A DNA stretch of 64,000 nt from Bacillus nitratireducens. GTDB taxonomy: Bacteria > Bacillota > Bacilli > Bacillales > Bacillaceae_G. The translations under genes and the position numbers were made by a program. A model generated the notes under the pieces. That model was given only the letters and a program-made list of their open reading frames with translations. It was not told the DNA's origin and made no database searches. The DNA is taken from contig NZ_MAOC01000007.1 in the NCBI RefSeq assembly GCF_001884135.1, positions 248,001-312,000 of the forward strand, written 5' to 3'. Each line of letters starts with the position of its first letter. The stretch's first letter is position 1. Positions 9,783 through 56,589 of the stretch are shown here, piece after piece.

Positions 9783-9812
9783 AGTATAGCATACCTCTTC
9801 CTTTTCTAACAA
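9783..9812 (-). promoter_or_regulatory. Predicted pycA promoter (SigA type)
   Basis: On the minus strand, TTGTTA (9807-9812) is followed after 18 bases by TATACT (9783-9788), preceded by TGC, an extended minus-10. It lies about 180 bases upstream of the pycA start. The CcpN-like boxes abut it on the upstream side. Confidence 0.6.
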
Positions 9813-9818
9813 CATTAT

Positions 9819-9881
9819 TGTATATCACATTAATTTTAATGTGATATATTTTTAATCAATATAACAAAATAGTATATCACA
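9819..9881. promoter_or_regulatory. Three CcpN-like operators including a perfect palindrome upstream of pycA
   Basis: Three 11-mers fit the consensus TRTGHYATAYW. They are TGTGATATACA (minus strand, 9819-9829), TGTGATATATT (plus strand, 9840-9850) and TGTGATATACT (minus strand, 9871-9881). The first two form a perfect inverted repeat of 13-base arms (TATATCACATTAA) around TT at 9821-9848. The region lies between the ftsW terminator and the predicted pycA promoter, and nothing else there explains the symmetry. Identity as CcpN sites is inferred from the consensus, which resembles an extended minus-10; clustering and symmetry strengthen it. Confidence 0.6.
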
Positions 9882-11526: not shown

Positions 11527-11676
11527 ATTGATTCCCTCCGTTTCCGTCCTACTCTCTCCTATCTATTAATATTAGCGATAGTTTTAATAAATTGCAATAG
11601 AAACATTTTTTGTGACAACAGTGTCTAATACTATTATACTGAAAAGTGGGAGTATAACACAAATGGGGGAACAACA

Positions 11677-22617: not shown

Positions 22618-22620
22618 AAA

Positions 22621-22650
22621 AAAAAACGCCTACATGTGTAGGCGTTTTTT
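22621..22650. terminator. Bidirectional tgl / sr1p-cluster terminator
   Basis: A perfect 14-bp stem AAAAAACGCCTACA / TGTAGGCGTTTTTT with a 2-base loop. It lies 3 bases after the tgl stop and 9 bases after the last sr1p-like stop, with T-runs on both strands. Confidence 0.92.
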
Positions 22651-22658
22651 CTTCATTA

Positions 22659-22787
22659 TTAAGCTTTTGAGTGTTCCTTTTGGTCACATTCGCAATGAGA
22701 TCCACATTTCCCGTAAAGTACTGTTGATTTTTCATCTTCAAAATGTCCGATTGTTCCTTCACATACTTGGCATACGATTGTTCCCAT
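22659..22787 (-). CDS. sr1p: SR1P-like GapA-binding peptide, copy 1
   Basis: A 42-residue peptide starting MGTIVCQVCEGTIGHFEDEK and ending YGKCGSHCECDQKEHSKA. It matches SR1P, the peptide encoded by the dual-function sRNA SR1 of B. subtilis, which binds GapA and promotes its RNase J1 interaction. Four of its five cysteines lie in CQVC and CGSHCEC, suggesting a zinc site. It is the last of three tandem paralogues and has the shared AGGGGGAAATG leader. Position between speA and pdhD is that of SR1 in B. subtilis. Whether it also acts as an RNA is not visible. Confidence 0.85.
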   Translation of the reverse strand: MGTIVCQVCEGTIGHFEDEKSTVLYGKCGSHCECDQKEHSKA

Positions 22788-22832
22788 TTTTCATTTCCCC
22801 CTGAGTTTTAATAATAATCTACTTATTTATAA

Positions 22833-22961
22833 TTAAGCTTTCGCATTATCTCTATTAGCACATTCACAATTTGTACCACATTTCCCGTAAAGCACTGTCG
22901 TTTTTTCATCTTCAAAATGTCCGATTGTTCCTTCACATACTTGGCATACGATTGTTCCCAT
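22833..22961 (-). CDS. sr1p: SR1P-like GapA-binding peptide, copy 2
   Basis: A 42-residue paralogue of the copies on either side. The first 20 residues are identical to copy 1, and the tail reads KCGTNCECANRDNAKA. The cysteine pattern is conserved (CQVC, then KCG..CEC). The leader is nearly the same as that of copy 3 over more than 20 bases upstream of AGGGGGAAATG, indicating a duplication that included regulatory sequence. No terminator separates it from copies 1 and 3, so a tricistronic transcript is expected. Function by homology to B. subtilis SR1P. Confidence 0.85.
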   Translation of the reverse strand: MGTIVCQVCEGTIGHFEDEKTTVLYGKCGTNCECANRDNAKA

Positions 22962-23020
22962 TTTTCATTTCCCCCTAAGTTTATGGTCCTAAAAACTTTT
23001 AGCTGTCCATTTCCTATCAA

Positions 23021-23149
23021 TTATTGGGCTTTTGTATGCTCTGTGTGATCACATCCGCAAGATCCACATTTCCCGTAAAGTACCGTTACTTTCTCATCTT
23101 CGAAGTGTGCAATTGTACCTTCACAATCTTGACATACGATTGTTCCCAT
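23021..23149 (-). CDS. sr1p: SR1P-like GapA-binding peptide, copy 3 (promoter-proximal)
   Basis: A 42-residue peptide with CQDC at residues 6-9, HFEDEKVTVLYGKCGSCGCD in the middle and tail HTEHTKAQ. It is the copy nearest the promoter and carries CQDC where the other two have CQVC. The ribosome-binding site AGGGGG is conserved. By homology it would bind GapA (glycolytic glyceraldehyde-3-phosphate dehydrogenase). The promoter about 60 bases upstream contains two CcpN-like boxes, so expression should be low with glucose and high in gluconeogenic conditions, as for SR1 in B. subtilis. Confidence 0.87.
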   Translation of the reverse strand: MGTIVCQDCEGTIAHFEDEKVTVLYGKCGSCGCDHTEHTKAQ

Positions 23150-23213
23150 TTTTCATTTCCCCCTAAGTTTATAATCCCAAAAACTTTTTGTAACCGCTTA
23201 ACTTTCTGTCTTT

Positions 23214-23262
23214 ATTTTAATATGTTATACTTTTTACGTCAATAGGTTTTTAGTATAACACA
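23214..23262 (-). promoter_or_regulatory. sr1p-cluster promoter with two CcpN-like operators
   Basis: On the minus strand TTGACG (23237-23242) and TAAAAT (23214-23219) are separated by 17 bases. One CcpN-like box lies within the spacer (TATGTTATACT on the plus strand, 23221-23231). A second lies just upstream of the minus-35 (TGTGTTATACT on the minus strand, 23252-23262). Both fit TRTGHYATAYW exactly. The arrangement agrees with known CcpN control of SR1 in B. subtilis. Confidence 0.72.
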
Positions 23263-31751: not shown

Positions 31752-32109
31752 TTGTCAAAATCCTTTCTGGCACTCTATATTCCTATTTTGATTATCACTT
31801 TTCAAATTTCAAAAAAAAGTATAACATATTAAACATCTGTGAAGAAAGCGTTCACTTTCTGACCTTATTTATGAAATGTGCATATAATATTAGTAAAAAA
31901 ATGTGGATACTTGTTCGGATGAATTTTCTTTTCTATTCTTCCTCATACTATATCTATAACTAACGGCTACTAATCGTTACTACAGGATAACTTACACTAT
32001 ACTAAAAAGAACAAGATTCACTATTCACTTCTAATCTTCTTTCTTGTACGGGAGACGGAGTTATCATTAGTAACATGCATGTTTAAAATAAGGAAAGGAA
32101 GGAGTAATC
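31752..32109. other. Divergent intergenic region upstream of ykrA
   Basis: 358 bases without a recognised gene. On the minus strand TATGTTATACT (31818-31828) matches the CcpN consensus but equally an extended minus-10 (TG-T-TATACT) for ykrA. About 20 bases further upstream, AGTGAACGCTTTCT resembles a cre site with mismatches at its ends. On the plus side TATACT near 31999 may drive the small peptide gene that follows. Confidence 0.4.
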
Positions 32110-56191: not shown

Positions 56192-56383
56192 ACTATAATT
56201 ATTCCCCTCAACTCAAAATACCCTCATTTTAATAATAAATCCCTATTATAAATTCTTAATTTTCTGAATAAAATAAATAAAAAACTTTAGAATTTTCTTA
56301 TTTTAAAACAGTGGACAAAATTCCGAAAATTGTGTTAGAATTTGTTTCAATATCATATTGCTTGTTACATTCCTTTCAAAAGG

Positions 56384-56548
56384 AAAATAGGTACACGAAC
56401 ATTTCATTTCGTGTTTAAAAGGGAAGTTTGGTGAAACTCCAACACGGTCCCGCCACTGTAAATGCTAAGATTTCTTTTTTGTGCCACTGTGAAAACGGGA
56501 AGGTGAAAGAAATTATATGAAGCATAAGTCAGGAGACCTGCCTATTTT
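56384..56548 (+). ncRNA. Cobalamin riboswitch aptamer upstream of metE
   Basis: The conserved cobalamin-riboswitch core is present: GGGAAGTTTGGTGAAACTCC, AACACGGTCCCGCCACTGTAA and, 80 bases on, AAGTCAGGAGACCTGCC. AAAATAGG (56384-56391) and CCTATTTT (56541-56548) close the outer stem. The position just before metE implies that B12 represses the B12-independent methionine synthase. Confidence 0.95.
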
Positions 56549-56589
56549 AACAACACTGGTAGACTCACGGATGATGATGAGGTGTTAAG

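What the first reader, a model, noticed from the sequence alone, without database searches (positions are those of the whole stretch)
22659..23262. Triplicated sr1p cluster replaces the single SR1 gene
Three tandem 42-residue paralogues of the SR1P peptide lie between speA and pdhD, the SR1 position of B. subtilis. They share an AGGGGGAAATG leader and the terminal hairpin and have one promoter with two exact CcpN boxes, one inside the spacer and one upstream. In B. subtilis SR1P binds GapA and helps it interact with RNase J1. Triplication with diverged tails (CQDC versus CQVC; CGSCGC versus CG..CEC) suggests dosage increase or sub-functionalisation. Whether the RNA keeps an antisense role toward ahrC is open.
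Basis: partly seen in the sequence, partly recalled or inferred. Interest (0 to 1): 0.78.

Follow-up and report, generated by a model that had tools for sequence, protein, structure and literature searches.

The report
Known triple SR1P peptide gene cluster
Three side-by-side copies of a short peptide gene that links sugar metabolism to RNA breakdown sit where the model Bacillus has one; the copies are real and look functional, but this triplication appears to be known already.

Summary
Three tandem 42-codon ORFs on the minus strand (23149-23021, 22961-22833, 22787-22659) pass the Pfam SR1P cut-off, and Rfam's SR1 RNA model hits three times above its gathering score. They lie between speA and pdhD, behind one sigma-A-like promoter with two exact CcpN-like boxes, and end at one strong terminator. 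The three cores differ mainly by synonymous changes, so they look selected, not decaying. Most likely this is one three-cistron SR1 transcript that raises SR1P dosage during gluconeogenesis. It is not new: a Bacillus anthracis RNA-seq paper (PMC8938561, section 12 read) lists three SR1P-encoding RNAs falling together with pckA and gapB, and I recall (text not held) that Gimpel et al. 2012 report sr1p in duplicate or triplicate in the B. cereus group. I add: tandem SR1P copies in other Bacillales, once at this same locus and once fused in one frame; a CcpN box pair conserved in most relatives examined; a recurrent cre-like site in the sr1 leader; CcpN-like boxes before pycA in the window and its nearest held kin; and a recurrent four-cysteine pattern in SR1P.

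The parts
23021..23149 (-). sr1p copy 1 (promoter-proximal), 42 aa, CQDC...CGSCGC
   Evidence: ORF, PF13790 72.7 bits, RF02376 53.2 bits
22833..22961 (-). sr1p copy 2, 42 aa, CQVC...CGTNCEC
   Evidence: ORF, PF13790 64.1 bits, RF02376 46.1 bits
22659..22787 (-). sr1p copy 3, 42 aa, CQVC...CGSHCEC
   Evidence: ORF, PF13790 63.5 bits, RF02376 64.6 bits
23214..23242 (-). sigma-A-type promoter TTGACG-17-TAAAAT
   Evidence: 10 of 12 consensus positions
23221..23231 (+). CcpN-like box TATGTTATACT inside the promoter spacer
   Evidence: exact match; same pair of boxes at -113/-82 in L018
23252..23262 (-). CcpN-like box TGTGTTATACT just upstream of -35
   Evidence: exact match; box pairs spaced 28-36 nt in 52 of 76 relatives
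23189..23202 (-). weak cre-like (CcpA) site GTTAAGCGGTTACA in the leader, 53 nt before the ATG of copy 1
   Evidence: 3 mismatches here; better versions at a like position in most of 76 relatives
22619..22652 (-). terminator hairpin behind copy 3, convergent with the plus-strand transglutaminase gene
   Evidence: fold -19 kcal/mol, z -7.5

Best explanation
This is the SR1 locus with the sr1p unit in triplicate. One CcpN-repressed promoter makes one long SR1 RNA of about 590 nt, with three Shine-Dalgarno/ATG units and a single terminator. When glucose is short, CcpN lets go and the three units together make more SR1P. By analogy with B. subtilis, SR1P binds GapA and strengthens its partnership with RNase J1. 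Shown here by sequence: three intact SR1P reading frames, one convincing promoter with a CcpN-like box pair, one terminator, and low dN/dS in each core. Shown in print: three SR1P RNAs falling together with pckA and gapB in B. anthracis. Inferred: a single transcript, translation of every unit, GapA binding by each, and dosage as the benefit.
For: Family hits for all three copies. Locus order speA-tgl-sr1p-SAV0927-DUF1885-pdhD also in L009 and L018, and in L087 as far as its 3.1 kb reach, pdhD not included. One promoter and one terminator. CcpN-like boxes conserved: at least one exact place in 66 of 76 relatives against 12 of 1267 other windows of the same loci; a pair spaced 28-36 nt (up to 1 mismatch) in 52 of 76 against 1 of 1267, and 23 of 3800 mononucleotide shuffles. 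Core codons 1-30: dN/dS about 0.07-0.12 between copies, dS 0.24-1.14. Co-regulation of three SR1P RNAs with pckA and gapB; putative CcpN sites before gapB and pckA of B. cereus are noted in print (PMC2358912, passages seen). A separate tandem pair between speA and pdhD in genome G332.
Against: I examined no expression data. The dN/dS values rest on about 19 synonymous sites in 30 codons; over the whole ORF, synonymous and non-synonymous differences are about equal in number (15.3/12.7, 12.5/8.5, 9/10). The single-transcript claim rests on consensus scans. Whether all three bind GapA is unknown. No tool identified the source species. The 397 sampled Bacillales genomes held no close match to the window's start block, so I could not count copies in its own group.
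Confidence: 0.8

Rival explanations
1. Sub-functionalisation: the shared core keeps one partner (GapA), while the diverged C-terminal tails give each peptide a different second partner or stability.
For: Tails differ more than cores in amino-acid-changing sites (dN 0.16-0.33 against 0.03-0.09); two forms of the second cysteine pair, CxxC and CxxxC.
Against: Tails vary freely across the 64 distinct peptides of the named relatives, also in length (33-43 aa), which looks like relaxed constraint rather than new function; position-by-position orthology could not be tested.
Confidence: 0.12
2. The amplified thing is the RNA: repeated units give more base-pairing sites for targets such as ahrC, and the peptides come along.
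For: Each unit scores as SR1 RNA; a 32-nt block is identical in the three units; a passage reports B. thuringiensis SR1 interacting with ahrC in vitro.
Against: In the core codons differences fall mostly on synonymous sites (11.3 v 5.7, 7.5 v 4.5, 4 v 2), as expected if the peptide is what is kept. The whole RNA folds only slightly better than shuffles (z -1.45, 9 of 100 shuffles as good). The identical block is the ribosome-binding and start region, while the ahrC contact in B. subtilis is reported to start in the terminator arm, which occurs once here.
Confidence: 0.06
3. Selectively neutral tandem duplication on its way to loss.
For: Copy number varies across Bacillales.
Against: All three frames are intact with low dN/dS in the core; three SR1P RNAs reported expressed in B. 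anthracis.
Confidence: 0.02

Closest known systems
SR1/SR1P of Bacillus subtilis
   Same: Locus, peptide family, RNA family, CcpN sites upstream of -35 and in the spacer
   Different: Three coding units instead of one; peptides of 42 aa instead of 39; the leader cre-like site is weak here
SR1 of the Bacillus cereus group (Gimpel et al. 2012, recalled; three SR1P RNAs of B. anthracis in PMC8938561)
   Same: Triplicated or duplicated sr1p region giving a longer SR1 (recalled); three SR1P-encoding RNAs
   Different: None known to me; a sequence comparison was not possible because no genome titled as that group appeared
Tandem sr1p pair of unnamed Bacillales genome G332 (L124)
   Same: Two SR1P units in tandem between speA and pdhD; two CcpN-like boxes before the first unit, read by eye in the printed sequence
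   Different: Two units, near-identical tails, and different peptide residues, so probably an independent duplication (inferred)

Membership tests
SR1P peptide family (PF13790) | Profile score over the curated cut-off | tested here: met
   63.5, 64.1 and 72.7 bits against 26; NCBIfam gave no hit for the three
SR1P peptide family (PF13790) | Binding to GapA and stimulation of RNase J1 | not testable with these tools
   Known for B. subtilis; not measured for these copies
SR1 RNA family (RF02376) | Covariance model score over the gathering score | tested here: met
   64.6, 53.2 and 46.1 bits against 45
SR1 RNA family (RF02376) | Place beside speA in Bacillales | tested here: met
   Window between speA/tgl and pdhD; speA, pdhC/D or tgl found beside 63 of 76 relatives within up to 3 kb
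SR1 RNA family (RF02376) | Base-pairing with ahrC mRNA | not tested
   No genome held for the window; B. thuringiensis case only seen as a cited passage
CcpN regulon | Two operator boxes, one upstream of -35 and one in the spacer | tested here: met
   layout as described for B. subtilis; box consensus recalled
CcpN regulon | Repression by CcpN in the cell | not testable with these tools
   Only inferred; co-regulation with pckA and gapB in print
Zinc ribbon proteins | Two cysteine pairs (CxxC plus C-x2/3-C) | tested here: met
   All three window copies; first pair in 64 of 64 distinct peptides, but selected for MGTIVCQ, so its first cysteine is there by construction; second pair in 60 of 64
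Zinc ribbon proteins | Zinc ribbon fold | tested here: inconclusive

The most novel reading that the evidence does not exclude
SR1P is a minimal zinc-binding (zinc-ribbon-like) GapA cofactor whose gene has been amplified repeatedly in Bacillales, and in this group the three copies have become specialised by their tails, so that a gluconeogenic signal releases a set of related metalloproteins that tune GapA-RNase J1 rather than one.
Probability: 0.1. Interest if true: 0.5.

Novelty: already known. Interest (0 to 1): 0.2.

Why it matters
It confirms that a small dual-function RNA locus can grow by tandem units while keeping one promoter and one terminator, and it gives natural variants for asking which part of SR1P binds GapA. 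Tandem and fused SR1P copies in other Bacillales suggest that dosage of this peptide may be under selection. The side findings (leader cre, pycA boxes, four-cysteine pattern) can be tested in harmless laboratory strains.

Tried and rejected
A very recent duplication was rejected because synonymous divergence is substantial (core dS 0.24-1.14). A promoter before copy 2 was set aside because promoter-like matches are near chance. Plasmid or phage carriage found little support: one SR1P in 72,556 plasmid records (a B. velezensis record of 806,695 bases), no match in 50,697 phage records, 38 pattern matches but none confirmed in viral contigs, and no close DNA in plasmids. The 32-nt identical block as a general constraint of SR1 was rejected: third positions of codons 2-5 vary among 68 distinct relatives, and the block with up to 3 mismatches occurs in 1 of 397 sampled Bacillales genomes; local conversion or a lineage-specific constraint is left. 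A zinc-ribbon fold could not be shown. No solved relative was found; the best PDB sequence match had E 0.19. My first motif filter missed many relatives and was replaced. Counting both strands of near-palindromic CcpN boxes put the number of loci with two exact boxes at 37 of 76; counted by place it is 34 of 76, and the figures are used. One search failed (new loci lay in another file) and was repeated. In PMC3831629 'SR1' proved to be a strain name. Other papers of which I saw passages only: PMC10989752, PMC8501984, PMC7430163, PMC10898510, PMC6079084, PMC7936320.

Full report
What is there. On the minus strand at 23149-22659 lie three intact ORFs of 42 codons that all belong to the SR1P family (PF13790, 72.7, 64.1 and 63.5 bits in the order of transcription, cut-off 26). 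Rfam's SR1 RNA model hits each unit over its gathering score, best on the last unit with the terminator. The neighbours are speA, a transglutaminase gene, a SAV0927-like gene, DUF1885 and pdhD (gene names by recall from the domains). The ATG-to-ATG periods are 188 and 174 nt, with 59 and 45 nt between genes.

Control region. A sigma-A-type promoter TTGACG-17-TAAAAT lies at 23242-23214. Exact CcpN-like boxes lie in its spacer (23231-23221) and just upstream of -35 (23262-23252) (the consensus is recalled). A review passage gives the same layout for B. subtilis (PMC8464778, passages seen). In 76 relatives from named genomes, 66 have at least one exact box in the 300 nt before sr1p and 34 have two, against 12 and 0 of 1267 other windows of the same loci; 52 of 76 have a pair spaced 28-36 nt with up to one mismatch, against 1 of 1267 windows and 23 of 3800 mononucleotide shuffles. 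So 24 of 76 lack such a pair by this measure. Ectobacillus panaciterrae (L018) has the identical pair at the identical positions, -113 and -82. The only terminator found is behind the third unit (-19 kcal/mol, z -7.5).

Selection. Core codons 1-30 differ with dS 1.14, 0.55 and 0.24 and dN 0.085, 0.067 and 0.029 (copies 1-2, 1-3, 2-3). The copies are therefore not very recent, copies 2 and 3 being closest, and each core looks held by purifying selection, although the numbers rest on about 19 synonymous sites. Over the whole ORF the counts of synonymous and non-synonymous differences are about equal (15.3/12.7, 12.5/8.5, 9/10), because the tails vary. A 32-nt block from the Shine-Dalgarno sequence into the sixth codon is identical in all three; third codon positions in this stretch vary among relatives, so the identity is either local conversion or a constraint of this lineage.

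How common is this. Around the match in 76 named relatives (up to 3 kb each side; four loci with a shortened flank), 75 have one SR1P, one (L009, Ectobacillus funiculus) has two on opposite strands, none has three. In 397 Bacillales genomes drawn from a larger group, 325 have an SR1P match (324 over the cut-off), and by my reading of that table 22 of 397 have two or more matches; these counts are lower bounds, since in many genomes not every candidate was scored, and a few extra matches are under the cut-off. The positions for all 22 were seen. Copies less than 300 bp apart occur in three of the 22 (G332, G391, G073). G332 carries a tandem pair between speA and pdhD, each member over the SR1P cut-off. 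Ectobacillus funiculus (G001, not among the rows with a match) carries one 166-aa frame with three SR1P modules; it begins 14 nt from the end of its contig, so the frame could be longer. In none of these did I see three separate copies side by side. None of the 76 named relatives is titled as a B. cereus group species, and the window's start block was met in 1 of 397 genomes, with 3 mismatches; so copy number in the window's own group could not be counted here.

What it most likely does. The parts point to one longer SR1 RNA with three translated units, released from CcpN when glucose is short. In B. [quoted passage not shown] In B. anthracis three SR1P-encoding RNAs are among the nine most reduced genes after a compound treatment, together with pckA and gapB (PMC8938561, section 12 read), which fits joint CcpN control. 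More peptide per transcript is the simplest benefit; specialised tails are possible but unproven.

Novelty. I recall that the abstract of Gimpel et al. 2012 (Nucleic Acids Res. 40:11659) says that the sr1p region is in triplicate or duplicate in the B. cereus group, giving longer SR1 species; the paper is not held, so this rests on recall. The B. anthracis statement supports three SR1P genes independently. The finding is therefore already known in kind and very probably in this very form. No tool named the window's species; 'B. cereus group' is my judgement from recall.

Side results. A cre-like site recurs in the sr1 leader: in the last 150 nt before sr1p, 66 of 76 relatives have a match with up to 2 mismatches (the best one 31-55 nt before the ATG in 64 of them, farther upstream in L003 and L029) and 50 of 76 with up to 1, against 201 and 15 of 2760 other windows (consensus recalled). 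A review places the B. subtilis cre about 260 bp upstream of the promoter. The window has only a weak version (3 mismatches). CcpN-like boxes also precede pycA: four exact ones in the window, and exact ones in 7 of 30 pycA loci fetched (30 of 32 matches, from 29 of 30 genomes searched). These 7 include L147-L151, the five most similar PycA loci, and none is the B. spizizenii locus L158. Two or more boxes occur in 5 of 30, against 0 of 1500 shuffles; one or more in 53 of 1500 shuffles. Against the idea: one of the window's four boxes (9793-9783) overlaps an extended -10, and the single box of L150 and one box each of L147 and L151 have that same shape. SR1P shows a first CxxC in 64 of 64 distinct peptides, partly by construction because selected for MGTIVCQ, and a second pair in 60 of 64; the fold prediction is too weak to prove a zinc ribbon.

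Noticed in passing
9783-9881 (between ftsW and pycA; names by recall): Four exact CcpN-like boxes upstream of pyruvate carboxylase, one pair with the same orientation and 31-nt spacing as at sr1; exact boxes also before pycA in the five most similar held loci (L147-L151) but not in B. spizizenii. Suggests pycA is in the CcpN regulon in this lineage; one box here, and similar ones in L147, L150 and L151, look like an extended -10.
   Followed up: partly
L001-L076, mostly 31-55 nt before sr1p; window 23189-23202: A cre-like (CcpA) site recurs in the sr1 leader, 66 of 76 with up to 2 mismatches in the last 150 nt, while the published B. subtilis cre lies about 260 bp upstream of the promoter.
   Followed up: partly
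L084:1306-1803 (-): Ectobacillus funiculus has a 166-aa frame with three SR1P modules in line, near a contig end, plus three single SR1P genes elsewhere.
   Followed up: partly
L124, L133, L137: Tandem SR1P pairs in three other Bacillales genomes; the one in L124 lies between speA and pdhD.
   Followed up: partly
SR1P family, L001-L076: Recurrent four-cysteine pattern CxxC...C-x2/3-C (second pair in 60 of 64 distinct peptides), suggesting that SR1P binds a metal; four papers hold both 'SR1P' and 'zinc', and I read none of them for it.
   Followed up: partly
11651-11661 (-) and 31818-31828 (-): Single exact CcpN-like boxes, the first upstream of the ORF 11526-11239 (-), the second upstream of the HAD-like gene 31751-30978 (-) (HAD by recall).
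   Followed up: no
56372-56559 (+): Cobalamin riboswitch, 109.7 bits.
   Followed up: no
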